From Clostridiales bacterium (GTDB lineage Bacteria > Bacillota > Clostridia > Christensenellales > UBA1242), in NCBI GenBank assembly GCA_918262735.1, contig CAKJYJ010000001.1:1-64000 (forward strand): DNA of 64,000 nucleotides, given 5' to 3'. Shown here in pieces: positions 429 to 49,200 of the stretch. A program made the position numbers and the translations under genes. The notes beneath the pieces were generated by a model that was not told the DNA's origin, searched no databases, and saw only the letters and a program-made list of their open reading frames with translations. Positions within the stretch are counted from its first letter, which is position 1; each line of letters opens with the position of its first letter.

Positions 429-2732
429 TTACCTTTCAAATATCTTTGCAACAATAATACTCATATCGTCTTTCGCAATTCCTCCACAGGTTGCAACTGC
501 CTTTGAAATTATATCATCTGCAATGGTCTGTGGGTTTGTGCTTGTTATGTTGTTGATGTGGTCTTGCATTTTGTCTGCCGTGCCAAAAGCGTCAACAATA
601 CCATCGGTTGCAAGAATTATTTTGTCTCCACTCGTGAAATATATTTGTTCGGATTTACTTTCGGCGTTTTGAATTATTCCAAGCGGGAGTGCCCCAATTT
701 TAACTTGCTCGGTTGTGTCTTTATGTTTAATAAAACTCTCTGGTGCCCCCATTTTTATAAAGTCGCCCTCGCCAACTCTGGTGTCAACAACACACAAATC
801 AAGTGCACTAAAAACTTCATTTTTACCAAGGCTTATTAGTTTGTTGACACTAGATAGAATTATCTCTTTATCAAAGCCAGCTTTATAAAAATTCTCTATT
901 AAATCTATCGCCGTGTTACTAGTTCTTTGTGCCATTTCTCCACTACCCATACCATCACAAAGCGCAAATAAATATTTTTCGTCCTTTATTTTAATAACAG
1001 AATAACAATCACCACTTTTAACAGAGCCCGTTTTTGTTTTTGAGGCGATGCCAAAAACAATGCCGTACTTTGGTGCTGATTTTAATGTTAAAATTTGCCA
1101 ACCAGCACGGGTGCTACTAACCTCGTCAACCACTTCCATTTTTTGTTTACACACCCTACTAACAACCTTGCATATGCCACTTTTATCTTTGTCATCTTTT
1201 CTAACCGAAAGTGTAACCGATAATATATGCTCCCTATCCTGAAAAACAAGGGCGTCAGAGCAAATAATATTATTGTATGTTAGTTCATCAATTATTTTTT
1301 TCTCTTTCCCACTTTCAAAAATAACGCCTTTGTTAACCTCTAATGATAAGTCTTTCATTATTTCACTAACACCCTCTAATTGTTCTGCCAAAAGCACCTT
1401 ACTTGCATCAATGTTATTCATAAGCCCAGCATAATTTTTATATTGATTAATTAAATCATTTATTGAGCTAACAAGGGTGTTCAATTTCTCACATTTGCCA
1501 GCAAATTCGGTTGGAACATCCAAAAGATTCACCTTGCCTTTTTTTATTCCAAGATTGACCATAACTGCCAAACAATTTGCTGTTTCGCCACCACCAATTC
1601 TATAACATTTACCAAAACTTGGGCAATTTTTACAATGTTTAATTTTTATTTCGTTAAGTATTAATCGCCTTTCGTCCTCCCCCATTATTCCGCCATTTAT
1701 CATACTTAAATACACCTTGTTCATCTCTGCAAAAACATCGCCAAGTTCAACAAGCCTATGATATAACATTTCCCGATTTCTATTAATAACGCTCTGCTGT
1801 GTTAAACTTGCAAGAGTACTTTGAAATTCGTTCCCAAAACTATCTAAAATTTTGCTTGGTATTAAAAGGTATACTAAACAGGCAATAATTGTTGGTAGAA
1901 TTGAAACAATAGAAAACTCGGTGCCAATATTAAAATATAGACCAAATAAACATTCAACCAATAGTACAGCAATACATGATATATATTTATTTTTTGTCTT
2001 GAATGCCGAAACCGTAAGACCCAAAATTGCAAACATTGTTAAAAAAGTTGGGTTATGCAAAAATAAAAAAGTGCCAAGTCCAGAACTGATTGAAATTAGC
2101 ATGACAGTTGTTACATTTGCAACATATGCCGCGGTCAAAAAGGTTAAAACGCCGAACAGTTTTACCAAATAAAATTCACCAAAATTAAAACTCATAAGCC
2201 CACAAAATGTTGCACAAAAAATTACCATTGCACAGATTATTTCTGTTGAAGTAAAACGACTACAAACTCCCCGAACACAAACCCCTTCAAAAATTTTAAT
2301 GCAAGCAAATGTATACATAAGCCCAAAAACAAATTCCACAAAAATTAAAACAATATTTGAATTAAGAAAGTAAATTTCAATGAATATTTTTGGAATGTTG
2401 CAAAGACAAGCATATATCAACAAATGAATATATTTAAGCGGTTTCTTTGTTTTATAATGAACAAAATATATGATTGCAAAAATCACACAAAATAAAGAAT
2501 TCTCTAGCAATATATATGTGGAAAAAGAGGATAAATACCCAGCCAAAACATAAATTATTGAAAGAATAATAACATTTTGATTACACCAAACAAGTGCAAA
2601 AAATAGCCCAAAAACAAAGGGCGTTATTGCTTCATTTAAACAGGCTCGCCCCGCAATGAATATCAACATAAAAAACATTATATATTTAGTAGCTAAAATA
2701 ACTTTTTTGTTTTTGCCTAGAGTATCTATCAT
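429..2732 (-). CDS. spoIIE: Stage II sporulation protein E, serine phosphatase
   Basis: SpoIIE dephosphorylates the anti-anti-sigma factor SpoIIAA, which releases sigma-F in the forespore, and it also localises to the asymmetric septum. The 767-residue protein has the family layout: about ten membrane segments in the first 300 residues, a central cytoplasmic region with a Cys cluster (HCKNCPSFGKC), and a C-terminal PP2C phosphatase domain from about residue 545. Metal-site motifs of PP2C are visible: CDGMGSGEMA, the stretch GAPESF, and ATDGIVDAF. The length is close to the usual ~800. The start has a good AGGAG site. Upstream there is a TTTTTGTCAA stretch resembling a Spo0A box, but I could not assign a promoter. 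Its presence indicates a spore-forming lineage. Confidence 0.95.
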   Translation of the reverse strand: MIDTLGKNKKVILATKYIMFFMLIFIAGRACLNEAITPFVFGLFFALVWCNQNVIILSIIYVLAGYLSSFSTYILLENSLFCVIFAIIYFVHYKTKKPLKYIHLLIYACLCNIPKIFIEIYFLNSNIVLIFVEFVFGLMYTFACIKIFEGVCVRGVCSRFTSTEIICAMVIFCATFCGLMSFNFGEFYLVKLFGVLTFLTAAYVANVTTVMLISISSGLGTFLFLHNPTFLTMFAILGLTVSAFKTKNKYISCIAVLLVECLFGLYFNIGTEFSIVSILPTIIACLVYLLIPSKILDSFGNEFQSTLASLTQQSVINRNREMLYHRLVELGDVFAEMNKVYLSMINGGIMGEDERRLILNEIKIKHCKNCPSFGKCYRIGGGETANCLAVMVNLGIKKGKVNLLDVPTEFAGKCEKLNTLVSSINDLINQYKNYAGLMNNIDASKVLLAEQLEGVSEIMKDLSLEVNKGVIFESGKEKKIIDELTYNNIICSDALVFQDREHILSVTLSVRKDDKDKSGICKVVSRVCKQKMEVVDEVSSTRAGWQILTLKSAPKYGIVFGIASKTKTGSVKSGDCYSVIKIKDEKYLFALCDGMGSGEMAQRTSNTAIDLIENFYKAGFDKEIILSSVNKLISLGKNEVFSALDLCVVDTRVGEGDFIKMGAPESFIKHKDTTEQVKIGALPLGIIQNAESKSEQIYFTSGDKIILATDGIVDAFGTADKMQDHINNITSTNPQTIADDIISKAVATCGGIAKDDMSIIVAKIFER

Positions 2733-14029: not shown

Positions 14030-14359
14030 ATGAACAAACTTTATGTAAAAGCATTAACAATGATGCTAGATCCAGAAATTGACGAAAAGTTCCAATGGGT
14101 TAATCAAGTATCCGCAGCAATCCGTTCGGTGCTTATGCCAATTTTAATTGTTGTTGCCGCTGCTGGAACAATTTATGCTGTTGTTCTTGGTGTTAACATG
14201 GCAAGAGCTGACTCTGCTGAAAAAAGAGAAGAAGCAAAGAAAAGAGTTGTTAACGTTTTGATTGGTATGGTCATTATTATTGCGTTGATTCTATTGTTTA
14301 ACTTGTTCATCGATAAAATACTTGGCGTGTTCATTGGAAGCAACGGCGAAACCGCTTAA
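14030..14359 (+). CDS. Small two-helix membrane protein, VirB2/TrbC pilin-like
   Basis: The 109-residue protein has a short N-terminal polar region and two long hydrophobic helices (about residues 34-56 and 76-98) joined by a charged loop (ADSAEKREEAKKR). This layout is that of the VirB2/TrbC-type pilins of type IV secretion systems and of equivalent small proteins of Gram-positive conjugation systems. The next gene in the same direction is VirB6-like, which supports the reading. A strong GGAGG site and a following terminator suggest high, independent expression. A specific family match cannot be proved by eye, because short two-helix proteins are common. Confidence 0.55.
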   Translation: MNKLYVKALTMMLDPEIDEKFQWVNQVSAAIRSVLMPILIVVAAAGTIYAVVLGVNMARADSAEKREEAKKRVVNVLIGMVIIIALILLFNLFIDKILGVFIGSNGETA

Positions 14360-14695: not shown

Positions 14696-16918
14696 ATGGC
14701 TCTTAGTTTATTGGGTGGCATCACTGATTTCTTCAGCAACACTGTTGTGACGTGGATATTGAACTTTTTGTCATTCATTCCAAAACTTGTGTACTTTATT
14801 GCAACCTGCCTACTTTCGGTTGTTGATTTCTTTCAGGTAACTTTTAGAAAACTTGCTGGTATGGACCCAGTTATGATTGGCCAAGAAGTAACCAAAGGAG
14901 ACTCTGTTTATAAAATTATCTCCGACGCTCTTTTAACTGGAAAATATCCTGCAATTAACACAATGTTCTGGTCGCTGATTATTCTTGGAATATTAATGCT
15001 AATTGTAACTTCAATAATGGCAGTTATTAGAATTGAGTACCGCCCAGATAAAGAAAAAGGAAATTCAAAAGCAGGTATTGTTAAAAACTTCTTAACCGCC
15101 CTATTCACATTTGCAATTGTTCCAATTGCTTCATTGTTTGGAATGTTCCTTGCAAACGAACTTGTTCAAGCTGTTGTTGAAATAACTGCATCCGCCACAC
15201 CTGTGGACGAAACATATAACTACTTTGACACGTGGGATGGGGTTCAACCCGGTGAAGAAATTGACCCAAATTTATACGATATAACCAATTCATATATGGC
15301 GTTTGATATATTTGGAGAAACAATACCAACCAACACTCAACCATTTAGTGGCGTTGTGTTTAAGGCTTGTGCTCATGGGTGTAATCGTTTTAGAATGTAC
15401 GGAGACGCATACCTTGCAGAAATAAACAACAGTTCAACCGACCTTGGAATTTTTGGCACCGGTCAAATAACCGAAGCTTCGGTTGCGGCAGACATTATTG
15501 ACACTGCGTTCTCAATTAACGCAAGAATGAAAAACACAAGCTCTGGCGGGTATTCATTAGATAAGAATATCTCTGGCGAATACTACAACGATTGGCTCGG
15601 CTTCTTTGGTAGCACAAAAGATTTAACACATTTTAGTAAATATAACGTTGAATTAGTTTGGTACTTCTATTACCTTTGGATATTTAACTATATTATTGCA
15701 TTCGCTGCACTTGTTTTAATGAGTAAAATGTATATGCAATACTGCTTATCATTAATGGCAAGGTTATTTGAAATTGCTGGTCTATTCATATTTGCTCCAG
15801 TTCCAGTTTCAATGATGCCATTAGATAACGGCGCCGCACTAGATAGGTGGCGAGGCGACTATATTAAAAGGTTCTCACTCCTACTATTCATGGTGTTTGG
15901 AATGAATTTGGTTTATCCATTTATGACAATATTTGGAAGTATTAAATTCTTTGGCTCACCAATATTGGATTATATTATTTCAACATTCGTTATTGTTGCC
16001 GGATTAAATGCCGTGCAAAGCATTTCAAAAATGCTCACAGGAATCTTACTTGAAAAGGGTGGTGAAACATTTGAATCTTCAATGAAATCCGCCGGCGATG
16101 CATTAACCGCAACCAGTCAAGGTTTCCAAGCAACAAAACGTGCAGCCAACCTTGCTTCAACCCCACTTAAACTCGCAGGAAGAGGTGCCGCTTGGGGTGC
16201 AGGGGAAATACATCGTGTACGTCAAGAGGGTGCTGAACAACGATATAATAACAATATTAATCGAACAAACCAAGAAGAACGACAAGAAATCAATAACAAT
16301 CTAAATTATGACGCAACTCAGCAAGCCAATTGGAGAAACACTTATGACACAGATGCCGCAGCAAGAAACGAAATGGCTGGAGACTTTATGGCAACTGAAC
16401 AGGGGCGCCAATTTGCAAGAAGATATTATCATGGAAATATGACCGCAGCAGAAAATGCGATACGTCGTGGTACAACAGCCAGCGGTAACCCAATAAGCGA
16501 CGCACAAAGAGATCAACTCGCAGAATTTATGTTCCATAGAGATAGGTATAGTCATTCTCAAGCAGGTCAGGCAGCACAGGCTTCTGGTGACACCAGAGGA
16601 TTCCAACAAGGACTTAATAATTATATGCAGTCTGACCATAATCAAAGAATTGAAGCATTAGTTGGTGGAAACTTATCTGCAAGACAAACAGCAATTCAAA
16701 CTGAACGTCAAGGTTATGAAAATGAGCATCAAAGACGTGAAAACAGACACCAACGTCTTGCTCGTGTTGGTGGAGTTCTTGGTAGGTCAAGAGAACGTGT
16801 GTTTAACCCTGTATTCTCTAGTGGAGCAAGCAACATGCAAGACTTGTTAGATTTAATTCATGGCCGAGATTTATTCTTTAGAAGAAGAGATGGTGGCGGC
16901 AATGGCGGAAGAAGATAA
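14696..16918 (+). CDS. VirB6/TrbL-like polytopic membrane protein with polar tail
   Basis: The 740-residue protein has about seven membrane segments: around residues 17-40, 90-110, 130-162, 325-343, 345-372, 393-415 and 424-440. A large extracytoplasmic loop (about 165-320) lies between the third and fourth. The segment ARLFEIAGLFIFAPVPVS followed by a WRGDYIKRFS stretch resembles the conserved core of VirB6-like proteins of Gram-positive conjugative elements, which form the inner-membrane channel. From residue ~475 the protein is hydrophilic and rich in Gln, Asn, Arg and Ala, ending in a Gly/Arg-rich tail. The start has AAAGGAGGT eight bases before. No relaxase or integrase is nearby, so transfer of DNA is not implied. 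Confidence 0.65.
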   Translation: MALSLLGGITDFFSNTVVTWILNFLSFIPKLVYFIATCLLSVVDFFQVTFRKLAGMDPVMIGQEVTKGDSVYKIISDALLTGKYPAINTMFWSLIILGILMLIVTSIMAVIRIEYRPDKEKGNSKAGIVKNFLTALFTFAIVPIASLFGMFLANELVQAVVEITASATPVDETYNYFDTWDGVQPGEEIDPNLYDITNSYMAFDIFGETIPTNTQPFSGVVFKACAHGCNRFRMYGDAYLAEINNSSTDLGIFGTGQITEASVAADIIDTAFSINARMKNTSSGGYSLDKNISGEYYNDWLGFFGSTKDLTHFSKYNVELVWYFYYLWIFNYIIAFAALVLMSKMYMQYCLSLMARLFEIAGLFIFAPVPVSMMPLDNGAALDRWRGDYIKRFSLLLFMVFGMNLVYPFMTIFGSIKFFGSPILDYIISTFVIVAGLNAVQSISKMLTGILLEKGGETFESSMKSAGDALTATSQGFQATKRAANLASTPLKLAGRGAAWGAGEIHRVRQEGAEQRYNNNINRTNQEERQEINNNLNYDATQQANWRNTYDTDAAARNEMAGDFMATEQGRQFARRYYHGNMTAAENAIRRGTTASGNPISDAQRDQLAEFMFHRDRYSHSQAGQAAQASGDTRGFQQGLNNYMQSDHNQRIEALVGGNLSARQTAIQTERQGYENEHQRRENRHQRLARVGGVLGRSRERVFNPVFSSGASNMQDLLDLIHGRDLFFRRRDGGGNGGRR

Positions 16919-17013: not shown

Positions 17014-18327
17014 TTATTCATATTCAGAATATGAGTCCGTTATAATAAAGTACGAATCGGCGTCAATATCTAGGTAAATATAATTATTGGCTTTAATATT
17101 TTCTAAAAGTGCTTGCTCGGAATAATCACCAAGGGTATCGTTAAAATATGTTTCAAATGTATTTTCTCTAAGCATTGTGAAAAGCGACTTCCCTTCTGCC
17201 AAATAATTAATATTGTTCTCGTCTATTGCTTCAAAAATTGAAAGTGGATACTCCGACAAATCAACGTCTAGCGATACATCAATTTTGCCATCAACAAACC
17301 ATGTTTCATCTGCGGTTGCTTCTTCAATTGTTTCTGGAGGCAATGCACCTTCTTTATATTTAACAGCAATATCTGCAGTTCTTGTGTTATCTAAAATTGC
17401 AACGAATGCCGAATCTGTTATTGTTACATCTTTGTTTGGCATGAATACCATTCCAAAATAATTTTTCTTTGGAAGTTCTTTTAATCCAGACTCTGCGTCT
17501 TCAAACAAATAATCTTTAATAATTATTTTGCTACATACATTTTTCATATAGCGGTAATCGGCATCAAACACCTCTCTTATTTTTAGTGCCAATGCCTCTT
17601 GGGTTACCCCACCGCCAACCAAGCCATTTGAAACCAAATAATTTGACATATTGGCAATTACCGTTTGGGTTTCCAATTCAGTAAATCCATAGTGGTCAAT
17701 TAGGTTTGTGTGATAGTTAAGGGAGTATTCTTCATTGTTTGAACCGCTTAGCGCTTTTGCATAGCTATATGTTATGTTATTAATTGCCTGATTATTATTT
17801 GGTTCAATTGCAAATGAAATACTTATGGTATAGTTACTATCCTCATTAACATCTCTTAATATGTTATATGTGAATTCTTTATATATTCCAGACATTTCCT
17901 CTGAGGAATATGCGCTATCGTAATATAAATATCTCTCCCCATAAAAAGCATCGCCCTTTACTCCGAGACCCGGAGAATATAGCCCATTTTGATATTCTCC
18001 ATTAAACATTGCAGAAGCATAAGAAGTTATGGCAACCACAATAACAATCACAATAATAACAACTAGTATTATTAGCCACACCCACCAGCCCAAGGACGCG
18101 AGAATTGTGCCAATCCACTTTATTACTGCCCATATGGCCTTACCAATTGCTTTGAGCATTTCTTTCATGGCTTTAGCGGATTTCTTTTTTAGTTTGTTTT
18201 TTGCTTCTTTATTCTGTTTTTTCTTTTTATTGCGCTTCGTATTCTTTTCAGACTCTCCGCCACCGTCATCTGCACTAGCTTGTAGCCCTTCAATTATAGA
18301 AGATTCGCCGTTGTTTTCCTCGTCCAT
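17014..18327 (-). CDS. Type II membrane protein with basic cytoplasmic tail, unknown function
   Basis: I do not recognise a family. The 437-residue protein begins with an acidic stretch, then a very basic Lys/Asn-rich region (about residues 30-60) predicted to be cytoplasmic. One membrane helix follows (about 78-102). The remaining ~335 residues are extracytoplasmic and mixed alpha/beta, with no catalytic motif I can see. The start ATG has a strong AAAGGAGGGG site. The gene faces the VirB6-like gene and lies between it and the AT-hook protein gene, so it is probably part of the same membrane apparatus. The basic tail could contact nucleic acid or acidic lipids (inference). Confidence 0.75.
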   Translation of the reverse strand: MDEENNGESSIIEGLQASADDGGGESEKNTKRNKKKKQNKEAKNKLKKKSAKAMKEMLKAIGKAIWAVIKWIGTILASLGWWVWLIILVVIIVIVIVVAITSYASAMFNGEYQNGLYSPGLGVKGDAFYGERYLYYDSAYSSEEMSGIYKEFTYNILRDVNEDSNYTISISFAIEPNNNQAINNITYSYAKALSGSNNEEYSLNYHTNLIDHYGFTELETQTVIANMSNYLVSNGLVGGGVTQEALALKIREVFDADYRYMKNVCSKIIIKDYLFEDAESGLKELPKKNYFGMVFMPNKDVTITDSAFVAILDNTRTADIAVKYKEGALPPETIEEATADETWFVDGKIDVSLDVDLSEYPLSIFEAIDENNINYLAEGKSLFTMLRENTFETYFNDTLGDYSEQALLENIKANNYIYLDIDADSYFIITDSYSEYE

Positions 18328-18549: not shown

Positions 18550-21072
18550 TTATTTTTTCTTTGGTCTACCAACGCTACGTTTTTCTTCTTTCTTTGGTCT
18601 GCCAACACTGCGCTTTTCTTCTTTCTTCGGTCTGCCAACGCTACGTTTTTCCTCTTTTTTGGGTCTACCAACGCTGCGCTTTGGTTCAGCTTTCTCTTCT
18701 TTCTTTGGTCTGCCAACACTGCGCTTTTCTTCTTTCTTTGGCCTGCCAACACTGCGTTTTCGCTCTGCAGGTTCTTCTTTCTTTGGTCTGCCAACACTAC
18801 GCTTTGGAGATTCTTCGTCTTTTCTTGGTCTGCCGGCGCTTCGTCTTTCTTCTTTCTTTGGCCTACCAACGCTGCGTTTTTCTTCTGTGGCTTTATTTGC
18901 ATTTTCATCTTTTCTTGGTCTGCCGGCCTTTCTTTTTGGAGCAACATCTTCTTCAGGCTCTTCTTCATCGGCTTCTTCTTCGGTTTCAGCCTCACCAACC
19001 TCTTCGCTAACCTCTTCTTCTGGCTCAGTCTCAACATCTTCTTCAGTCTCGGTTTCTTCTGCCTCTAAAGAATCTTCTTGGGCAGCATCTTCTTCTTTTA
19101 CAGGTTGTTCAGTTGCGCCAGTTTCTGTTGCTTCTTTTTCAACAACTTGATTAGTTGAAACCAAGTTGCCATCACTATCGTAAACATTTCCTTCTAAATC
19201 GTGATAAAGCCCATTTGTATCATAATATGTTTCATCATTAAACCAATAATACCCGTTGCTATCATAGTGCCCATCAGCGTCTTCATCTTTTTGTTCCTCT
19301 GCTTCTTGTTGAGCCGTGATTTCCTGTTGTGCCTCATTTAATTCATTTAATGTTTCTTCGCTAACAATTGGTTCTTCTGTTGCAACTTGTTCCTCTTGTT
19401 CTTTTACCTCGTTTTCAACCTGAGGCTCTGGCTCTTGGGCTTGAGTGCTAACCTCTGGCTCAGGAACATATTCGTAATACTCTGGTTCAGCATTTGGTTG
19501 TTCATCTTGTGCTGGGTATTCTTCATATTGAGGCTCTGGTTGCATTTGTGAATATAGTTGCTCGGCATAATTTGCGCCGTCAACATAGCCTTCATCAACG
19601 TTGCCAACATATGCCTGATTTCCACTCTTTAATTTTTCAATTTCTTCTTTAAGCATATTAACTTGACGTTGATATTCTTCTATAGATTGGTCTTTGGTTT
19701 GAATTAAAGAATCTTTGTTGTCAACATCCGACTTCAAATATGCAATTGCTTGAGCATATTGTTCTTTTTCTTTTTCAACCCTCTCAACTGTTTCGTCGGC
19801 ATATTTTTTAAGGTCATCAGAAATGGTTGTGTATAGTTTGTTTGAGAATGTTTGATACTCGTTTGTCATTGCGTCTTGAACTTTTTGAAGTTTTGACTCG
19901 AGGTCTGTTCTTCTCTTTTCAATTTCTTCATTTAATGACTTAATTTCTGCATTAAATTTATTTGTTGCATCATTCAAATCTTTTTCAATTTGTTCTTGCT
20001 TTTTAACTTCATCTTGTTGTTGTTTTCTTATGTAGTTAACTTCAATACGGTTAGTTGACTCTTCCTGTTGTTGTCTTAACCTCTCCATATTTTCTTTAGA
20101 AGCTTGCAGTTTTCTTTGATAATCTTTTGAAGTGTTTTCATAATTCTTTTTAAGTGTTGAAATTTCTGCTTCAAATTGTTGAATTTCCGCATATATTCTC
20201 TGTTTTGCATTTAAGTATGTTTCTGACTCTTTCATTGCACGTTCTAGCACAAGCGAACCATCAACTCCAGAAGTCGAAAAGTCATATTGTTCATGAGAAA
20301 CCGCATTGCGTTGTGCCTCTTCAAGTTCCTCTTGCTCCTGACGAGCACGTTTTTCTAGGTATTCACCAAGAATTGGAATTCCATTTTTAATTTCTTTCTT
20401 TGTGAACAAAACTTCAAAGTCAACATATTTTGGAATGGTTGCACTTGCCTTGTCGATATATCTATTAAATATATGGAATGTTTGATACAAACTTGCCATA
20501 TTATAATTTTGCATTGTTCTTAAAATTAATGTGAACACAACATATATTATTAAAATTAAAACTGGTGCAACTAAAGACAATGAAATATAAACTATGAAAG
20601 TTTCAGTTCTAAAAGCGTAGTACACTAAAGATAAGAAGAACGTAACAAATGCAGTAACTTTTAATATTATTCCAAAGTTTTTAATATTTGCCAAAAAACT
20701 ACTTGTTTTTAATGGCTTGTCAATACAGTTATATGCACTCATATATTCGCTTGGGTTCTTATCTCTATACAGCATATATTGTTGCCAATGTTTTCTTAAA
20801 ATTTTTGGAGTTCTGCCATCTTTAATCATTTTGTTAAATTCAATTAAATTATCTCCAGTTATGGTTTGGTTTTTATAAAGCCACTCATTAATTCTGTTAA
20901 CAGCTTTTTCTAGCTTTACCTCATACGCGAGTGATGACTTAATAAAGAAGAATAAAACCATTAATAATGCGAAGCCAACGCCCACATAAAAAATTCTGTC
21001 AATGGTAACAACCGAACTAACAGCGGTTTGTATAGCGTCCCAAATTGTTTGTACAACCTCTACTAACAACAT
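18550..21072 (-). CDS. Membrane coiled-coil protein with ten C-terminal AT-hooks
   Basis: The 840-residue protein has a membrane segment near residues 27-44 and two more near 128-150 and 155-185. A long coiled coil rich in Glu, Gln and Lys follows (about 235-470). Next is an acidic Pro/Glu/Gln-rich linker containing an Asp/Tyr/Gly repeat region (about 608-665, for example DSNGYYWFND and DTNGLYHDLE). The last ~128 residues hold ten copies of the AT-hook core GRPKK/GRPRK, mostly in an 11-residue repeat KRSVGRPKKEE. AT-hooks bind the minor groove of AT-rich DNA. With its membrane anchor, the protein could tether DNA at the membrane, either as part of the neighbouring secretion-like apparatus or in chromosome organisation. 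No known bacterial protein with this architecture comes to mind. The start overlaps no other gene. Confidence 0.85.
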   Translation of the reverse strand: MLLVEVVQTIWDAIQTAVSSVVTIDRIFYVGVGFALLMVLFFFIKSSLAYEVKLEKAVNRINEWLYKNQTITGDNLIEFNKMIKDGRTPKILRKHWQQYMLYRDKNPSEYMSAYNCIDKPLKTSSFLANIKNFGIILKVTAFVTFFLSLVYYAFRTETFIVYISLSLVAPVLILIIYVVFTLILRTMQNYNMASLYQTFHIFNRYIDKASATIPKYVDFEVLFTKKEIKNGIPILGEYLEKRARQEQEELEEAQRNAVSHEQYDFSTSGVDGSLVLERAMKESETYLNAKQRIYAEIQQFEAEISTLKKNYENTSKDYQRKLQASKENMERLRQQQEESTNRIEVNYIRKQQQDEVKKQEQIEKDLNDATNKFNAEIKSLNEEIEKRRTDLESKLQKVQDAMTNEYQTFSNKLYTTISDDLKKYADETVERVEKEKEQYAQAIAYLKSDVDNKDSLIQTKDQSIEEYQRQVNMLKEEIEKLKSGNQAYVGNVDEGYVDGANYAEQLYSQMQPEPQYEEYPAQDEQPNAEPEYYEYVPEPEVSTQAQEPEPQVENEVKEQEEQVATEEPIVSEETLNELNEAQQEITAQQEAEEQKDEDADGHYDSNGYYWFNDETYYDTNGLYHDLEGNVYDSDGNLVSTNQVVEKEATETGATEQPVKEEDAAQEDSLEAEETETEEDVETEPEEEVSEEVGEAETEEEADEEEPEEDVAPKRKAGRPRKDENANKATEEKRSVGRPKKEERRSAGRPRKDEESPKRSVGRPKKEEPAERKRSVGRPKKEEKRSVGRPKKEEKAEPKRSVGRPKKEEKRSVGRPKKEEKRSVGRPKKEEKRSVGRPKKK
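18553..18936 (-). repeat. 33-bp tandem repeat encoding AT-hooks
   Basis: The 3' end of the gene is built from 33-bp units that encode KRSVGRPKKEE, interrupted by a few variant units and short spacers. Ten GRP cores are present. The last four units are nearly uninterrupted, which points to recent unit gain or loss. Long open frames on the other strand and in other frames are by-products of this repeat. Confidence 0.9.
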
Positions 21073-21296: not shown

Positions 21297-24200
21297 CTAT
21301 AAACTTATTAAACTATTCTTTGATAAATTAAGTATGTATCTTTTCACACTAGCCCCACCAAAGCCAAGCCTTAATGCTTTTGTGTAAATATCTATTTGTT
21401 TTTTGTATGAAGATATTATTTGCTCATCACTTTTGTTTGTGTATTTATAATCAAATAGCACTATTTTATCCTCGGCCAAAACAACTAAATCCATTATCCC
21501 TTGAACCAATATTTTACATTCCTCTCCACCATCAACCAAACTTGAATGTGGAACCCTCATAACAAACTTTTGCTCTTTAAGAATCTTCTTTCCTGTTGTG
21601 TATTTTTTTAGTATTTCAATATTGTTAAATATTTTTTCATATCCAAATTGTTTTATCGTTTCTATCTCTTCGTTTGAAAAATTGCAACTAACAAATTGTT
21701 CAACATCAAACACGCTATTAATATTTTCAAAATCAATCTTTTCTAGCAGCAAATGATATAGTGTGCCGTCGTCGGTTGATATTTCGTTTAGATGCTCGTT
21801 CTTGTTTAATAACTTTGGCATCATATTAACGCAAGAATAGTCATCAAGTGCAATTCCAGACACCGAATTTTTTAGTGCCAAATTTTTTTGCTTCTTTAAC
21901 AAATCAATGTTCAAATATTCTGCTAACTTTGAAGCATATTTTTCATTTTCTTCCACAACAACCTTTTCACCGGCAAATTTGTTTTCTTCAACTTTAACCT
22001 CGTCCGCACAAAGTTTTAATTTGTTGTTGTTAAATAAATTTGCATCAAATGTTTCTAGCTTATTTATTCTATCAATTTCTTCTTGGCTTAAACTTCCAAT
22101 AATAAGGCTTAAAAAATTATTTTGTCTTAAAATGTTCATGTCACTGGTTAAACGTTTGAACTTGCCATTATTAATTCCTGTTAGTATTAACTTATTCTCT
22201 GCCCTTGTGATTGCAACATACAAAAGCCTAATTTTTTCGCTGGTTTCTGACACTTTATTCTTGAGCTTACATGCATCATAAAATATTCCGTAATTTACGG
22301 ATCTTTCGTCATCATTAAACAACTTAATTCCAACGCCTAATTCTTTATTAATTTCAATAACCGAGCCAACCCTAACCCTGCCATCTGGCGAATACCCATT
22401 TCCACTGTTGTTGAAATTCTGGCTAAGACCCGGCAAAATAACAACCGGATATTCCAACCCCTTAGATGAGTGCATGGTTGCAATTTGAACAGCCTTTGAA
22501 GACGCCTTTGTGTTTTTAACACCAACATCTCTTTGTGTTGACTCTCTAAAAGTTACATAACTACACAAATCAAAGTTATATTTAGAGTTCCAAAAACTAT
22601 CAATAAATGCCCGAATGTTTACCCGTCTGTTTTCAAAATCCGGCTCAAATGATATCTTTAATAGATATTCGCTCTCTTTAACTATTCTTGAAAGAGCATA
22701 ATATATTCCCTTATATTTTGCATTAAAAGAAAATTCCTCAATCGTTTTATAAAATTCTTTTAATTTATTTGCCAACTCATCATTAAACTTTTGGGCATAC
22801 TCATAAAGAGCTTCGTAAAAATATTCACAATCCGTTTTTAATCTAACGCTTGCAAAATCGCCGTCAGAAAAATTAAATAGACTAGAAGAAATAACACTAT
22901 ATATTGCATAGTCATCACTCTTGTTATATGCAAGTTTAATAAGGTTAAACAGCACAGTGTTGTCGTAAAGACTTTCCAGTTCATCATTGTTGGATACCGT
23001 GTATGGTATTCCAAGTTCAACAAAGTGTTTAATTAAGTAGTTTTGATATGGCTTTCTTTTCCTAAGTAATATTGTTATGTCTGAAAAATCAATCGCTCGC
23101 TCTTTTTTTAATTCTTTATCATATATCTTTTGCCCAAGCAACTCCGCAATTTTATTACAAATAAACAAACATTCCTCGTCATACTTATTTATTGCAACGT
23201 TTAACCCCCTATCCTCTTTAATGTCATAAACCGTCGTTGGTTTTGGAAGCTCGCCCCCCTCAACAGCAGAATTAATGAGATTTAGTGAAACACATACCTC
23301 ATTATCAACATCTTCAATTTTTGCCTTTGGGTCAAACTGTGCCTTTGCCCTATAATTAATTCCTGCCGTTTTTTCTGTCATAATAACATTAAATATTTCA
23401 TTGGCAAAATATAGGATATTCTTATTTGTTCTAAAATTGCAATTTAGTGTTTTTGCAACACTATTTTCATCTTCCCCACCGAAATCCTTTTCAATATCTA
23501 AAAATATATCTGGGTCGGATTGCCTAAATGCATATATTGATTGTTTTGTGTCGCCAACAAAAAACAAGTTATTATTCTTAATTAACGATATTATTTTTTC
23601 TTGAACGGCGTTTGCATCTTGAAACTCGTCAACAAAAATATATTTATATGATTTTTTTATTTGCTCTTTTAGTTCTTCTTTTTCTAAAAGTTTAATTGTA
23701 AGTCTTTCAATATCATTAAAGTCAAATTTATTTGCTCCAATTTTGGCAGTTTGATATTTTTCTATAAATCTATTGAGCAGTTCAAAAATAGAATTAATTA
23801 ATTTGCCACAATAATCATATGATGCCTCAATTTCTTCTGGCGTGCCGTAAGACTCTTTTATTGTCTTAAATGTTTCAACCATGTCATCTCTAATATCTTT
23901 TATTTCGTCTTTCAGCCCCAGGTTGTCGCCACGCTCTTTTCTAAGAGTTCCAAAATCAAAATTGTCTATTACCGAAACCTTTTTTGAAAATGACTCAGAA
24001 ATTAAAAAACCATCACAGATGCTGATTAAATTTGTTATATATTCAACATATCTACCAAACTCCAGCTCAACTGCCCGCCCGCGCTGTTCTTCCAACCTTG
24101 CCTTATAGTCACCAACAACATCATTGTAATATTCGCATAAATATTTTTCTGCAATTCTTTCGTTTTTGTCATATAATGATTTTGTTTTGTTCCAAAATTC

Positions 24201-24761
24201 TTCAATGCTTAAAATTGAAGTTGAATAATTATATATTTTTAGAATGGTTGCTTTTATTGAATTTTCATCTCTATTGGAAGCTAAGTTTTCAATTAGATGA
24301 GAATACATTTCTGGCTCGGCAGATTTCATTTCTGCAATTGCTTTTTCCATCGCCTTGGCTTGTTCGTAAACTTCATCTTTTTCGTCCAACACAGAAAATG
24401 AGGGGTCAATATCCAAAACATAAAAGTACTTTTTTATAAGTTTTTGACAAAAACTATCAAACGTTGAAATGTCGGCGGTTTGAACTTTGTCTAACTCGTC
24501 TTGCAAAAACTCTTTTTCGTTAACGCTTTCTTTTAATCTGTCTAACAGCCTTTTTTTCATTTCCATTGCGGCAGATTTTGTGTAGGTTAAAACCAGCAAT
24601 TCGTCAACGTGACAATCGCCATCTAAAATGTATTGAAATATCTTTTTAATCATTATGTGGGTTTTACCACTTCCAGCGGAAGCCGACACAATCATATTTT
24701 TATTCTTAATATGCATTATCTCTTCTTGCTCTGGAATAATTATTTCCTCACCTTTAGACAT
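21297..24761 (-). CDS. addA: ATP-dependent helicase/nuclease subunit A
   Basis: AddA is the UvrD-type helicase and nuclease subunit of AddAB, which processes double-strand breaks for recombination. The 1,154 residues carry the SF1A motifs: Walker A SASAGSGKT (about residues 31-39), FVDEFQDAN, GDTKQSIYAFRQSDPDIF, TMHSSKGLEYPVVILPG and LLYVAITRAENKL. The C-terminal RecB-type nuclease motif is GIMDLVVLAEDKIVLFDYKYT with the Asp...Asp-x-Lys residues. The start overlaps the addB stop by 8 bases and has a GGGGAG site inside addB, so the two are translationally coupled. Confidence 0.96.
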   Translation of the reverse strand: MSKGEEIIIPEQEEIMHIKNKNMIVSASAGSGKTHIMIKKIFQYILDGDCHVDELLVLTYTKSAAMEMKKRLLDRLKESVNEKEFLQDELDKVQTADISTFDSFCQKLIKKYFYVLDIDPSFSVLDEKDEVYEQAKAMEKAIAEMKSAEPEMYSHLIENLASNRDENSIKATILKIYNYSTSILSIEEFWNKTKSLYDKNERIAEKYLCEYYNDVVGDYKARLEEQRGRAVELEFGRYVEYITNLISICDGFLISESFSKKVSVIDNFDFGTLRKERGDNLGLKDEIKDIRDDMVETFKTIKESYGTPEEIEASYDYCGKLINSIFELLNRFIEKYQTAKIGANKFDFNDIERLTIKLLEKEELKEQIKKSYKYIFVDEFQDANAVQEKIISLIKNNNLFFVGDTKQSIYAFRQSDPDIFLDIEKDFGGEDENSVAKTLNCNFRTNKNILYFANEIFNVIMTEKTAGINYRAKAQFDPKAKIEDVDNEVCVSLNLINSAVEGGELPKPTTVYDIKEDRGLNVAINKYDEECLFICNKIAELLGQKIYDKELKKERAIDFSDITILLRKRKPYQNYLIKHFVELGIPYTVSNNDELESLYDNTVLFNLIKLAYNKSDDYAIYSVISSSLFNFSDGDFASVRLKTDCEYFYEALYEYAQKFNDELANKLKEFYKTIEEFSFNAKYKGIYYALSRIVKESEYLLKISFEPDFENRRVNIRAFIDSFWNSKYNFDLCSYVTFRESTQRDVGVKNTKASSKAVQIATMHSSKGLEYPVVILPGLSQNFNNSGNGYSPDGRVRVGSVIEINKELGVGIKLFNDDERSVNYGIFYDACKLKNKVSETSEKIRLLYVAITRAENKLILTGINNGKFKRLTSDMNILRQNNFLSLIIGSLSQEEIDRINKLETFDANLFNNNKLKLCADEVKVEENKFAGEKVVVEENEKYASKLAEYLNIDLLKKQKNLALKNSVSGIALDDYSCVNMMPKLLNKNEHLNEISTDDGTLYHLLLEKIDFENINSVFDVEQFVSCNFSNEEIETIKQFGYEKIFNNIEILKKYTTGKKILKEQKFVMRVPHSSLVDGGEECKILVQGIMDLVVLAEDKIVLFDYKYTNKSDEQIISSYKKQIDIYTKALRLGFGGASVKRYILNLSKNSLISL

Positions 24762-27700
24762 TCAAAATCTCCCCAAAATTTTCATTAGCAATTAAAAACC
24801 CTTCCACACGCCGCAAACTTTCATCTCCAGAATATTTACAAATTTCATTAAACTCGCAACTATCACATTTGTTGCTAAATGGAGAATATGCAATGTATCC
24901 TTCTTGCATGTTTTTAATTGATTTTTTAACAATTTCAATTGCATACAAACAAAATGCCTCAAGCTCTTTCTCGCTTAATTGGTTGACCTTCTTTTTTAGC
25001 ACAAGTTCGCCACTTTCATTTGGCTTGTTAAGCGAAACACCAATAATGTCGCTCTTATTATTTGTTCCTAATTTATTGTCACAATCTCTGGCAAGTGCAA
25101 CCGAGTTTTCAAAAAATCCACACAATGAAAACTGTGCCTTATTATCTTTTGTGAAAACATTTCTAATTGGCAGATAAAAAGCCCCAAATAACTTTTTATT
25201 TACGTTTCTTTTTATTGCCTTGGCATACACAAAAAGCTGAACCTTTTGCCCGTAATACAATTTCTCTTTTCCTTTTGTGATGTTGGTTGCTCCGGTTTTA
25301 TAATCAATTATTCTAAAATAATCACCATTTATGTCAATCCTATCAACAATGCCCGAAATTAAATATTCTTCCCCATCAACTTCAACTTTAATACCGCTGA
25401 ATTGCGAATTATTTCCAAAGTATTTTTCAACATATTTGGGCTTAAATTTAGAAACCGATTGCTCATAGTTTAGAAACACACAAAAACGCACACATTCGTC
25501 ACAAATAAGCTTAAACAAAAATACATTTTCGCTTAACTTTAATGCATAAAAATCCTCATCATCAACCGTAAGGTTACATAGTTTATTAACGGTCATCCTT
25601 ATTTCTTCTTCGTAAAGCGTGCCAAGTTTTAACATATTTTCTTTAACAAACATCTCTGCAATTTTGTGTATGAATGTTCCAATAATATTTGCTTCAACTG
25701 TTTTCTTTTTTAATTTTTTTATCTGCAATCCATTTGCAAGAAATGCTGAACGTGGACAAGAATTATATTTCTCAACCAAAGAAACCGAAGCTTTATTATT
25801 TTTGAAGAATAAATTTTTATAATCTGAAAAGTTATCTCTGTTTTTTTGCAAAACAAACAAACCGCCGTCAGATATGAGGGCCGCTTTAATAATTGGAGCA
25901 ACCATGCTATTATCAATATTTCGTAAATTAATGTTCGCGTTATAATTATCAACAGCATTATAACAAATTTTATTAATGCCCAACATGTTTCTATCATAAT
26001 ATTTCAAACCGTCAACGTTAATATCGTTAATTTGTAGTAGGTATTTCAGTTCTGTTATTATTTCTGCAGGTTGCAAATTTTTACCGTCATCTTCAACCAT
26101 ATGATAAAATAAATATGATTTTTTTGTTGGAGACAAAATAACGTCTAGAGTTTTGAATTTGTTTCTTTTATTTATTATTGCCGTTGTTGGCTCAATTTTT
26201 GCTTTTATTGTTTCGCTTAATATTTCTTTATCAGTAATCAACCCACAGTCATTCAAAATGTCTGGAGTCACACCCTCATTCAGCCCGAGCGTAAAGAGGT
26301 ATTTAACATCGCCATAAAAACTTTTATAGTCACCAACAAACACCTCACTAACTCCACATGGCACTCCCGATATTGTAGAATTACCAAATGATGTTTCAAG
26401 AAGTTCTATAAAGTTTTCAAAGCTCAATATCTCTTCCCCTAACACTTCTTCACACTCGCCTAAAAGACCTGTTATTTTTTGCGATAATTGCTTATATTCT
26501 TTTTGAAGCTGAATTTCACCAGTCTCATTTACCCTTTCACAAAAATCCTCAATTTTGCCAAAAATTTCTAATTTGTCAATTATGCTATTAACAAAATTTA
26601 TGTAACCCCCAACAGACTCATTGCTGTTTTTAATCCTATATGTAAGAATTTGTTTTAGTATTGCCACTAAATCTTCATCTAGATTTTTCTCATATTTCAA
26701 AATTGTTTCAACGCTTAAATATTGATAAATAAAATTAATTAGTTTTTCGCTTTGCTCTTTTTTTATTCCAAAAAAATCATTTGAGACAATCTGTGTGAAA
26801 AATTCAGTAGCACCCGTTTGTGCATATTTCAAAATTGACAAAATTAGTTTAACTGGTTCAAAATTAATTAATTTATTCTTTTCGTCTTGATATGTTGGAA
26901 CGCCAATATTATTAAGTTTAGAAACAATGAGTCCATGGTATGCGCTTGGAGCACAAACCGCAACATCATTAAAATCAATATCTTCCGTTTTTAACAAATA
27001 ATTAATACTTTTAATTACCGCATCAATTTCATCTGTAACTGAAGATGCCCTATATATGTTTATAAAGCCATTACCCGAAAATACATTCTTTCTACTAAAA
27101 ACATTGTTTAGAACAATATTTGCCTCGTCATTCTCAAATTTCAAATCTTCATTTCTAAACTCAGCCTTAATTTTGTTTTCTTTGCACATTTTAATAATGC
27201 CATCTAAAAAACTAGTGTCATATATTCTTTTATTGTTCTGATCAATTGGAGCAACAACCCCAAGGTATGTGAACCTAGAATTTTTACAAACGTTACAAAC
27301 AACCTCAACGCCTTGCTTGGTCATAGAGTCAAACCCAACAAAAAAAACATTGCTATTAGAAAGATATGACGACTCAAAACATATTTTGTTAAATAGTGAT
27401 AGGGTTTCACCACTATCTAACTTATTTCCTCTTAATTTTTCATATTCTCTGTATATTAAAATAATGTCATCAAATTTTAGTTTTGTTCCAATATCGGCAT
27501 TTTCGTCAATTAAGTTTTCAATATCAACACCGCTTGACTTTAACTGTTCAATTTTTGCATACATTTCATCAACAAAACCAAGTGTATAACTTTTAGAAAA
27601 ACATTTAAAATTATTACAAACGTTTTGAACAGCCTTCAAAACCAAAAGTTTAGATTCAAATTCGGAACAAAATGTAAATTCTAAATTGTTTTCTTTTATA

Positions 27701-27921
27701 ATCTTATTTGCAAATTTTGATATTCCGGTAACTTCAATATTAAAATATATGTCAACTCCAAGCAGGTCAAAAATTTGTTGCTCGGTAATTAGGCTAAGCC
27801 TGTCCGGAACAATAACAATATTATTAACACTAATATCACCCATAACTCCACGCAGTTGTTTAATCATGTGCTTAAACAACATTTTTGTATTATTGGAAGT
27901 TATAACCGTCAATTTGCTCAT
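24754..27921 (-). CDS. addB: ATP-dependent nuclease subunit B
   Basis: AddB partners AddA and contributes the second nuclease and, in known homologues, Chi recognition. The 1,055-residue protein has a degenerate helicase core and a C-terminal PD-(D/E)XK nuclease (ISGIVDRIDINGDYFRIIDYKTG). An iron-sulfur cluster is suggested by one Cys in YNSCPRSAFLANG and three in CDSCEFNEIC near the end, as in AddB. The usual Walker A at the N-terminus is not obvious. There is no Shine-Dalgarno site; a TATAAT box ends six bases before the ATG, so translation probably begins at the very 5' end of the mRNA. Confidence 0.93.
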   Translation of the reverse strand: MSKLTVITSNNTKMLFKHMIKQLRGVMGDISVNNIVIVPDRLSLITEQQIFDLLGVDIYFNIEVTGISKFANKIIKENNLEFTFCSEFESKLLVLKAVQNVCNNFKCFSKSYTLGFVDEMYAKIEQLKSSGVDIENLIDENADIGTKLKFDDIILIYREYEKLRGNKLDSGETLSLFNKICFESSYLSNSNVFFVGFDSMTKQGVEVVCNVCKNSRFTYLGVVAPIDQNNKRIYDTSFLDGIIKMCKENKIKAEFRNEDLKFENDEANIVLNNVFSRKNVFSGNGFINIYRASSVTDEIDAVIKSINYLLKTEDIDFNDVAVCAPSAYHGLIVSKLNNIGVPTYQDEKNKLINFEPVKLILSILKYAQTGATEFFTQIVSNDFFGIKKEQSEKLINFIYQYLSVETILKYEKNLDEDLVAILKQILTYRIKNSNESVGGYINFVNSIIDKLEIFGKIEDFCERVNETGEIQLQKEYKQLSQKITGLLGECEEVLGEEILSFENFIELLETSFGNSTISGVPCGVSEVFVGDYKSFYGDVKYLFTLGLNEGVTPDILNDCGLITDKEILSETIKAKIEPTTAIINKRNKFKTLDVILSPTKKSYLFYHMVEDDGKNLQPAEIITELKYLLQINDINVDGLKYYDRNMLGINKICYNAVDNYNANINLRNIDNSMVAPIIKAALISDGGLFVLQKNRDNFSDYKNLFFKNNKASVSLVEKYNSCPRSAFLANGLQIKKLKKKTVEANIIGTFIHKIAEMFVKENMLKLGTLYEEEIRMTVNKLCNLTVDDEDFYALKLSENVFLFKLICDECVRFCVFLNYEQSVSKFKPKYVEKYFGNNSQFSGIKVEVDGEEYLISGIVDRIDINGDYFRIIDYKTGATNITKGKEKLYYGQKVQLFVYAKAIKRNVNKKLFGAFYLPIRNVFTKDNKAQFSLCGFFENSVALARDCDNKLGTNNKSDIIGVSLNKPNESGELVLKKKVNQLSEKELEAFCLYAIEIVKKSIKNMQEGYIAYSPFSNKCDSCEFNEICKYSGDESLRRVEGFLIANENFGEILNV

Positions 27922-29021: not shown

Positions 29022-29486
29022 TGGTGACCTCGGCGGAATCGCTCCGCTCTCGCTTTCACGCCTGGTGCGGCAAAACGCAATACCATTGCCTTTTGCTTTT
29101 CGCACACGTTCGATTCCCGCATCCCTCTAACCAATTTTAACAATAAAAAAACTTGCATCTCTGCAAACTCATTTCTGGTGACCTCGGCGGGTATCGCTCC
29201 GCTCCCGCTTTCACGCCTGGTGCGGCAAAACGCAATACCATTGCCTTTTGCTTTTCGCACACGTTCGATTCCCACATCCCTCTAACCGATTTTAACAATA
29301 AAAAAACTTGCATCTCTGCAAGCTCATTTCTGGTGACCTCGGCGGGAATCGCTCCGCTCTCGCTTTCACGCCTGGTGCGGCAAAACGCAATACTATTGCC
29401 TTTTGCTTTTCGCACACGTTCGATTCCCACATCCCACTAATCAATTTTTAACAATAAAAAAACTTGCATCTCTGCAAGCTTATTTC
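29022..29486. repeat. Three tandem ~155-bp units carrying the tRNA-Glu 3' end
   Basis: Units begin at 29022, 29176 and 29331, and the intact tRNA-Glu gene begins the next period at 29487. Each unit has the last ~20 bases of the tRNA gene (GGTGACCTCGGCGG...), then a long hairpin (GTGCG...CGCAC, for example 29220-29260), then the tRNA terminator hairpin CTTGCA-TCTC-TGCAAG. The spurious open frames across the array repeat with it and are not genes. Confidence 0.9.
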
Positions 29487-29562
29487 TGGTGACCTCGGCG
29501 GGAATCGAACCCACAACTACGCCGTGAAAGGGCGTTGTATTAACCTTTTTACCACGAGGCCA
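29487..29562 (-). tRNA. tRNA-Glu (anticodon TTC)
   Basis: The minus strand folds into a cloverleaf. The acceptor arm TGGCCTC pairs with GAGGTCA, the anticodon arm CGCCC-TTTCACG-GCG presents TTC, the T loop is GTTCGATTC, and the CCA end is encoded. It follows tRNA-Met by seven bases. Confidence 0.93.
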
Positions 29563-46287: not shown

Positions 46288-46293
46288 GTGAAT

Positions 46294-49200
46294 ATGAGAG
46301 GTTTAGTTAAAAAACTTATAGTATATTCTTTTTTAATAACTTTGGTTTTAACTCTAGGGGTTTCATTAACAGGTAGCAAAAAAACATTTGCTATCGGTAA
46401 TGAAACTACTTATGATAGTTTTTTTGATGCAACGTTTATTTCTGATTATGAATTTAATGGAGAAGATAATCAATTTTTATACTCAGGCAAAGTTGCAAAT
46501 GCCGCAGCATTTAATAATAATGATGCCTTTTTAGTTAACAGTGATAAAAAAATTTTAGTAACACTAGGAATGGGATATTCAGATAATATAACAAATCTAG
46601 TTCAAACAATAAAAGTTAATAACACAACATTTGATATTAATCATACTGCAATACTAAACGAATACGGTTTATTTGTAAATTATGGTTGCGACCTAGTAAA
46701 TAGAGATAATAATGAAAGGTCAAACGCAGCTTTCGTTTTAGTTGTTGACCCAAGTTCACTCAGTGATATCAGTGATTTTATATATGGTAAATATGAAATT
46801 GAATTTTCTTTTGTTTACACAGATGATGAAGAAGTTCAAACTCAAGTAAACTTAACCAGGTCTTTTTATGTGTTAAATAAAAGCGATTATGCAAGCAATG
46901 TTATTTTTGCAAACTATAACACAGTGGGGTCTTCTGATTATTATTCAAATTATTCAAAAAATAATCTAATGTATTTCAGATATAACTACAAATATATTAA
47001 CATAACAATATCAAGGTTGTACCAAGGGTTAACAACAGTAACAACATTAAAAAATATAAATGGTGAGTTTACTGTTAGTTCAACAAATGAATTAGGTAAT
47101 TCAACAAACAAGCGTAATGTTGTTATTTCAATGTCTAGTGATTTTGATAATGATAACATAATATATGTAACTTTTAATGACGTTGGAACATACTACATAA
47201 GCTATGAATATATTAATCCAAGTTTACAAAATGATGTTATAACAAAATTTTATTATGACACATTAAAATCAACCGACACAGCATATGTTTTTGGTTATCA
47301 AGCATATTACACAACACAAAATGAATTAACCGAGTTTAAGAGTGTTGACCAAGACGCTCCATACATAATTAGAAAGAAATCTAACTGTGCAGACATAACA
47401 TGGTATATTGAAGCCAGCATCAGTAATGCCTTTGATGATGGCTATATAAGTAGTGTTGATGATATAGCAAAAACAAATCAAGCTCCTGTTTATTTTCAAA
47501 CAAATGCCAGAATTAATGTGGAAAATTCAGAGTATTATTATTTTGAAAATCCAACAGTTTTTTTAGAGTATGAACCAAGTAATTATGGTAGCATTCCACT
47601 TTATAATAAAGATGCAGTGCAACAAGCATATAAAGTTAAAAACTACACTGGGTCATCACTTAGCAACACAGGTGTATATTTAGTTCAATTAGCCTACACA
47701 TTTAATAGTGAAAATCCATACTATCAATATTTCTTATTCAGATTAACAGATGATGCACCAGAAGTTAAGGTTTTTACTATTGAAAAAGATGGCGGTGGAA
47801 ATATTATTTATGAAAATGACATTCCAAAACAAAAATCATTAGTTAAAAATGAATCATATACATTTGAAGATATTTGCATAACAAAATCATCTCTTGGTAT
47901 ATTTGATTCAGCATCAACTCTATCGGTTTATAAAGATGATGAATTTAACGGCACATACAGATTTTCAACTATTTTAAGAGACGATAACTATATAGTTATA
48001 ACCGACACAGCAAAGTATAAATTAGTTCTAACATATGGCAATAGTGATAAAAAAGGATTTACCTCATATTTCACAATTGATAAAACTGAAATAACTGGCA
48101 TACAAACAAGCAATGTGTATAAAGGTGTTGGCTCAAATTATTATGGTAATAGCATAATTGAAAATGGAAAAACAAGTTCACCTTTTGTTGTTTATTGGAA
48201 TGAAAAGGCGAGTGGTGCAAAAATAACACTAGAGTATAAATATTTTCCAACTAGATTTTCTTCAATATCAAGTTATTCATCTAGTGCTCTTGGAACAATG
48301 TATAATTCGGAGCAAAATAAATATTCAATTCCATCAACATACACATTCACATATAATGGTGGTGAAGTTCCAACAATTGAGTACACAAACACAAAGAATA
48401 AGGTAGTTTATTCGGAAAATGATATACTATCTGAAGGCGGTTTATACATTTTCTATATTTATGATGAAACAGGTGCCGAAGGTAAATATTTTGCAGTGTT
48501 TATGGATAACACGCCAAACAGTATTGTTTCATACTCACAAAATATTTACACAATAATAAACAATAATGAAATGACATCAATCGACACAACATTATTCTTT
48601 GGAAAATACAAGTTAATAAAGTTTAATTATGATAACATAAGTAATTATGATGATTGGTTGGTTAATTATTTAAATGATAGTAATTCAACAACATATCAAG
48701 GTTCAACATACTTAAAAATACTTATAGAAAAAACCGTTTATATTGAAATTAATTCAGATACTGTTTTAAGTTACACATTAGCAGATGGTAACAACTATGG
48801 GTATGCAATTAATTCAGAATTATCAGAAGGTGTTTATAATGAAAATCAATATTCCTTCTATTCGATTTGTGAAACAACAAATACTTACGATCCGGTTTAT
48901 GCAAGAAATACATATAATTACTACAAAAATAACTACACACAAACTCATAGCATAACATTCTCAACCGATAATTCAAGAATGATTGTGTACTATAACGATG
49001 GCAGTAGGTCTAAATTCTTAATTCAAGCACCAGCCGTTTTAAATGATAATGAAAATATAAAATACACATATTATCAACCAACAGCAAAAAACACTCTTGG
49101 GAATTTAGAGATATTAAAATTATCATATAACACAATGCCAAGTGATGAACTTATTGTTGAAAGTATCACAGTTAATTATTATCCTTTTGAAAAAGACGTA

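What the first reader, a model, noticed from the sequence alone, without database searches (positions are those of the whole stretch)
18550..21072. Membrane coiled-coil protein with a ten-fold AT-hook tail beside type IV secretion-like genes
Seen: three membrane segments, a long coiled coil, an acidic Asp-repeat region, and ten GRPKK/GRPRK cores in a 33-bp tandem repeat at the C-terminus. Known: AT-hooks bind the minor groove of AT-rich DNA and are common in eukaryotic chromatin proteins, while bacterial arrays this long on a membrane protein are unusual. Inference: it could tether the AT-rich chromosome or transported DNA to a membrane apparatus.
Basis: partly seen in the sequence, partly recalled or inferred. 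Interest (0 to 1): 0.78.

Follow-up and report, generated by a model that had tools for sequence, protein, structure and literature searches.

The report
Membrane ZorA-like protein with AT-hook tail
An unnamed membrane protein family of gut Clostridia, related to the motor-like phage-defence protein ZorA and encoded right behind the DNA-repair nuclease genes addAB, carries a long arm whose end looks built to grip DNA (ten AT-hooks here), so it probably ties DNA to the cell membrane, a role not yet described for this protein fold.

Summary
The ORF at 18550-21072 (-), 840 aa, is real and described nearly correctly: three TM helices, long coiled coil, acidic linker, ten GRPKK/GRPRK cores. The cores are under purifying selection (pN/pS 0.13). 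(2) The N-terminal 250 residues are a remote ZorA homologue (MotA/TolQ/ExbB superfamily): significant PDB profile hits only to ZorA (best E 1.5e-4), Foldseek top hits ZorA/ExbB/TolQ (model pLDDT 94), and a direct profile link to a ZorA encoded beside a ZorB. (3) No ExbD/MotB partner was found and the ion-path Ser/Thr are not conserved, so it is probably a scaffold, not a motor. (4) Within its family nearly all tails are positively charged, as AT-hooks or histone-H1-like Lys-rich stretches; other families lack this. Best reading: a stator-derived membrane scaffold that grips DNA and probably serves AddAB. DNA binding and AddAB contact are inferred, not shown.

The parts
18550..21072 (-). Gene X: 840-aa membrane protein, ZorA-type N-terminal domain, coiled-coil arm, acidic linker, AT-hook tail
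20932..21003 (-). TM helix 1 (aa 24-47)
20701..20931 (-). Predicted cytoplasmic loop (aa 48-124) with the most conserved residues (P89, W96, P107, P120); shared with ZorA-like proteins L203/L204
20617..20700 (-). TM helix 2 (aa 125-152), no fixed Ser/Thr
20515..20598 (-). TM helix 3 (aa 159-186), continuing as a cytoplasmic helix to aa 212
19627..20259 (-). Coiled-coil arm (aa 272-482)
19153..19281 (-). YYDxxG repeat, predicted short beta strands (aa 598-640)
18943..19152 (-). Glu-rich linker (aa 641-710)
18553..18942 (-). Basic tail with ten GRP[KR]K AT-hook cores (aa 711-840)
21297..24761 (-). addA-like helicase-nuclease subunit, conserved upstream neighbour (best NCBIfam model addA_Gpos, 543.6 bits, below its equivalog cut-off 707.65)
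24754..27921 (-). addB-like subunit (Pfam ADDB_N and PDDEXK_1 over cut-off)
17014..18327 (-). Genus-specific membrane protein downstream of X (weak CD1108 mobile-element family similarity); not part of the conserved unit
14696..16918 (+). VirB6-like conjugal-transfer membrane protein; neighbour only within the genus
14030..14359 (+). Pilin-like conjugal-transfer protein (T4SS_pilin); neighbour only within the genus

Best explanation
X is a membrane scaffold derived from the ZorA branch of the MotA/TolQ/ExbB superfamily (shown: remote homology and fold). It has probably lost ion-driven motor function (supported: no recognisable B-subunit gene, no fixed Ser/Thr in TM2/TM3). In this family it gained a coiled-coil arm and a flexible cationic tail, here ten AT-hooks, which projects into the cytoplasm and binds AT-rich DNA with high avidity (inferred). 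Because the gene follows addB-addA across the order, the most likely task is to hold DNA, and perhaps AddAB itself, at the membrane while broken or foreign DNA ends are processed (inferred from gene order only).
For: Fold and homology: Foldseek of the N-terminal model (pLDDT 93.6, pTM 0.82) gives ZorA first (probability 1.00, TM 0.55), then ExbB, TolQ, PomA (same for the full model). The sequence profile hits only ZorA significantly in the PDB (E 1.5e-4), and outside the order finds ORFs L203/L204 (E ~1e-14; 52-54 bits over ~190 residues), which match ZorA models and lie before a ZorB (PADLOC ZorB1 E 2e-66; OmpA domain). No motor: no ExbD, MotB_plug or MotA_ExbB match over cut-off in G000 or the 20 other family genomes searched; TM Ser/Thr at most 49% at any TM2 core position. 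DNA-gripping tail: purifying selection on the ten cores; 62 of 66 distinct complete family proteins have AT-hooks or a +8/40-residue basic stretch (background ORFs 68/265), 0 of 22 in other families. AddAB link: adjacency 65/71 and 18/21 loci, median gap 126 bp.
Against: Five genomes with a whole X locus keep addAB elsewhere (e.g. G014, G023, G030, G034), and G003 has addAB with no X found, so neither strictly needs the other nearby. Most families of the order that have addAB show no detectable X. The window's hooks lack the Arg before GRP. A few family members have no basic tail (4 of 66). No contact with AddAB or DNA was tested. E-values to ZorA proper are modest and TM-scores ~0.55 come from a predicted model.
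Confidence: 0.5

Rival explanations
1. A general nucleoid-membrane tether: X organises or anchors the AT-rich chromosome, and its position behind addAB only reflects an old operon.
For: Single-copy, vertically inherited core gene in 31 of 36 family genomes; tails of two different nucleoid-protein-like kinds; X persists in genomes where it has moved away from addAB.
Against: The addAB linkage is kept over many families, also where X has no basic tail, so the linkage is older than the DNA-gripping tail.
Confidence: 0.25
2. An ion-driven ZorA-type motor or sensor with an unrecognised B-subunit, serving phage defence with AddAB as the nuclease.
For: Closest solved relative is ZorA; Zorya systems recruit helicase/nuclease effectors through the ZorA rod (PMC11890865).
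Against: No ExbD/MotB-type partner found; polar ion-path positions not conserved and TM helices less conserved than the cytoplasmic parts; core gene rather than a patchy defence-island gene.
Confidence: 0.1
3. The tail binds something other than chromosomal DNA (RNA, acidic lipids, polyphosphate, or the protein's own acidic linker).
For: The Glu-rich linker lies next to the cationic tail in the same protein, and Lys-rich tails are not DNA-specific in general (own knowledge).
Against: Selected GRP cores with flanking basic residues recur in most family members and pass the Pfam AT_hook model here.
Confidence: 0.1
4. DNA-handling part of a conjugation-like type IV secretion system.
For: Pilin-like and VirB6-like genes next door, and a TraG/VirD4-type coupling protein at 59261-61246 in the same window.
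Against: Adjacency only in the genus (3 loci), opposite strand; X is conserved without them elsewhere.
Confidence: 0.05

Closest known systems
ZorA of Zorya anti-phage systems (MotA/TolQ/ExbB superfamily)
   Same: Three-TM N-terminal domain with large cytoplasmic loop, long cytoplasmic helical arm, detectable profile and fold similarity
   Different: No ZorB-type partner, no conserved ion-path residues, no Zorya effector genes; AT-hook or Lys-rich tail; placed behind addAB as a core gene
ExbB, TolQ and MotA/PomA stator A-subunits
   Same: Same predicted fold
   Different: Not recognised by Pfam MotA_ExbB in this genome; partner subunit absent; TM helices poorly conserved
AT-hook proteins (HMGA family; bacterial examples such as WhiB7 and CarD)
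   Same: GRP core flanked by basic residues; Pfam AT_hook over cut-off
   Different: Ten hooks on a membrane protein; the hooks here have Val/Ala before GRP instead of Arg
Bacterial histone-H1-like Lys-rich tails
   Same: Lys/Ala/Ser/Thr-rich tails in sister homologues such as L044, L050, L057
   Different: Attached to a membrane scaffold; interchangeable with AT-hooks between related lineages

Membership tests
AT-hook proteins | GRP core flanked by basic residues, Pfam PF02178 over gathering score | tested here: met
   19.4 bits vs 17.4; ten cores
AT-hook proteins | Canonical Arg/Lys directly before GRP | tested here: not met
   0 of 10 in the window protein; met in most relatives
[quoted passage not shown]
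   needs a binding assay
MotA/TolQ/ExbB superfamily (A-subunit) | Three-TM fold with large cytoplasmic domain between TM1 and TM2 and a helical extension after TM3 | tested here: met
   model pLDDT 93.6; Foldseek top hits ZorA, ExbB, TolQ, PomA
MotA/TolQ/ExbB superfamily (A-subunit) | Sequence-profile similarity to members | tested here: met
   ZorA E 1.5e-4; ZorA-like L203/L204 52-54 bits; but no PF01618 match in G000
Ion-driven stator motor | Conserved Ser/Thr ring in TM2/TM3 | tested here: not met
   no fixed Ser/Thr position; at most 49% in the TM2 core and 35% in TM3
Ion-driven stator motor | B-subunit (ExbD, TolR, MotB, ZorB) encoded in the genome | tested here: not met
   no ExbD or MotB_plug match in G000; an OmpA-domain search was not run
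Zorya defence system | zorA-zorB operon with zorC/zorD or zorE | tested here: not met
   neighbours are addA/addB; no ZorB or effector genes in the loci
Type IV secretion system component | Conserved linkage to T4SS genes | tested here: not met
   pilin/VirB6-like genes in 3 of 73 family loci, all one genus
AddAB-associated gene | Conserved same-strand position directly after addA | tested here: met
   65/71 and 18/21 loci
AddAB-associated gene | Physical or functional interaction with AddAB | not testable with these tools
   needs experiment

The most novel reading that the evidence does not exclude
A stator-derived, partnerless ZorA relative has become a fixed core component beside AddAB: it anchors the AddAB helicase-nuclease and its DNA substrate at the membrane through AT-hook or histone-like tails, a housekeeping counterpart of the Zorya principle (membrane anchor with rod plus helicase-nuclease).
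Probability: 0.3. Interest if true: 0.82.

Novelty: new variant of a known kind. Interest (0 to 1): 0.62.

Why it matters
The family matches no Pfam or NCBIfam model over its N-terminal domain, yet it is a single-copy core gene across a family of small-genome gut Clostridia and occurs behind addAB in several other families of the order. If the reading holds, the MotA/TolQ/ExbB fold has been reused as a DNA-holding membrane scaffold, AT-hooks serve outside transcription and chromatin in bacteria, and AddAB end processing may happen at the membrane in these organisms. Each of these can be tested with one protein.

Tried and rejected
Type IV secretion component: rejected on gene order. Ion-driven motor: not supported. 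Antisense or low-complexity artefact: rejected by selection on the repeats and conservation of the ORF in relatives. Weak Pfam hits (PalH, MWFE, DUF2207 and others) are far below cut-offs and disagree with each other. JetC/MukB hits of the full protein lie in the coiled coil and are taken as coiled-coil similarity. The class-wide search returned mostly weak partial matches; only the ZorA-like L203/L204 are convincing. Literature searches for AT-hook membrane proteins of bacteria and for AddAB membrane tethering found no matching precedent in the open-access library, which is incomplete.

Full report
Observation. The ORF 18550-21072 (-) is intact, 840 aa, and has the stated anatomy. AlphaFold models three membrane helices, a compact cytoplasmic loop, a long helix aa 272-482 and a disordered tail. 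Ten GRP cores lie at aa 717-835 with spacings 19, 11, 14, 15, 11, 15, 11, 11, 11. Between copies pS is 0.61 and pN 0.08, so the peptide and not just the DNA repeat is kept. AT_hook is over the Pfam cut-off and no other place in the 1.26-Mb genome is. All ten have Val or Ala before GRP, a relaxed form; most relatives have KRGRP[KR]K.

Who it is. Relatives come from MAGs named Christensenella sp. UBA1242, Candidatus Caccopulliclostridium and uncultured Clostridia. From these names I infer the order Christensenellales and, less surely, the GTDB family UBA1242. A profile of the first 250 residues finds X in 31 of 36 family genomes searched and in 6 of 24 genomes of other families of the order. In a wider sample of the order 81 of 297 genomes matched the earlier profile. 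In the class, outside the order, only L203 and L204 are convincing.

Context. In non-redundant loci X directly follows addA on the same strand in 65 of 71 family loci and 18 of 21 loci of other families, median gap 126 bp. The neighbours are called AddA and AddB from best-matching NCBIfam models (addA_Gpos 543.6 bits, addB_Gpos 273.3 bits, both below equivalog cut-offs) and from Pfam UvrD, ADDB_N and PDDEXK_1 over cut-off. The pilin-like and VirB6-like genes are beside X only in the window and in G001 and G002. G004 lacks X and shows only a helicase-level addA match and no addB; G003 has addAB but no X; G014, G023, G030 and G034 have both, apart.

Fold. No curated family matches the N-terminal domain. 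A first profile hit ZorA at E 0.016; a deeper one (86 sequences) hits four ZorA entries at 1.5e-4 to 1.6e-3, the next hit being 0.045. Foldseek of two independent models ranks ZorA first, then ExbB, TolQ and PomA. The same profile aligns over about 190 residues with L203 and L204, including the conserved Trp96 and Pro120 regions. These two ORFs score on ZorA models, and the gene after each scores on ZorB (L203: PADLOC ZorB1 2e-66, OmpA domain). I therefore take X as a remote ZorA-type member of the MotA/TolQ/ExbB superfamily.

Motor or scaffold. Zorya and Mot motors need a ring of Ser/Thr in the A-subunit around an Asp of the B-subunit (PMC11890865). In X no TM2 or TM3 position is fixed Ser/Thr; the best TM2 core positions reach 48-49%. 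TM helices are less conserved (1.5-1.7 bits) than the cytoplasmic loop and the post-TM3 segment (2.2-2.5 bits). No ExbD or MotB_plug match was found in G000. An OmpA-domain search of the genome was not run, so an unusual partner is not excluded.

Tail evolution. Of 66 distinct complete family proteins, 47 have two or more AT-hooks, 3 one, 8 an H1-like Lys-rich stretch, 4 another basic stretch and 4 none; of 22 proteins from other families none qualifies. A +8 charge in 40 residues is not rare (68 of 265 background ORFs), so the contrast matters more than the single value, and related sequences are not independent. On a tree the AT-hook label needs 4 changes, at least 3 forced by supported branches, and H1-like tails are sisters of AT-hook tails (for example L053 against L042, L050 and L054). 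Deep placements rest on long branches. Replacement of one DNA-binding-like tail by another is the best indirect evidence that the tail binds DNA.

Ancestral form. Members from other families are mostly 290-600 aa: the three-TM domain, a variable, often acidic linker, and in many a C-terminal helical peptide of the form [KR]xINxALxxLLxAM. Divergent members of the window's family (L061, L199, L200) combine that peptide with one or two AT-hooks. The peptide is reduced in the two nearest relatives and absent in the window protein, where hooks run to the last codon. This peptide pattern was read by eye and not tested statistically.

Mechanism. Shown: membrane-protein architecture by prediction, ZorA relationship, selected AT-hook array, addAB linkage. 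Inferred: cytoplasmic side of arm and tail, oligomerisation, DNA binding, cooperation with AddAB. The most economical model is an oligomeric membrane anchor whose arms place many weak AT-hooks on DNA, giving avidity, close to where AddAB works.

Noticed in passing
window 59261-61246 (-): TraG/VirD4-type coupling protein (T4SS-DNA_transf, 174 bits), so the genome does hold conjugation-like genes besides the pilin and VirB6-like ones.
   Followed up: partly
window 46288-53868 (+): 2526-aa ORF without a Pfam match; distant relatives of similar size lie next to X in L044 (G032) and L045 (G019).
   Followed up: no
window 29022-29507: 155-bp unit repeated 3.1 times at 95% match, running into a tRNA-Glu gene (29487-29561).
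   Followed up: no
L203:1491-3865 and L204:2744-5091: ZorA-like plus ZorB-like gene pair between a shikimate dehydrogenase-like gene and a pilus-type ATPase (T2SSE), without obvious Zorya effectors: perhaps a non-defence ZorAB.
   Followed up: partly
X aa 598-640 (window 19153-19281): YYDxxG repeats predicted as beta strands with pLDDT ~90; similar repeats in L044, L045, L050, L054.
   Followed up: no
window 429-2732 (-): SpoIIE homologue (sporulation phosphatase) in a genome of only 1.26 Mb.
   Followed up: no
L185:908-1555 (G017): In a genome without detectable X, a 215-aa ORF similar to the window's pilin-like gene follows addA.
   Followed up: no
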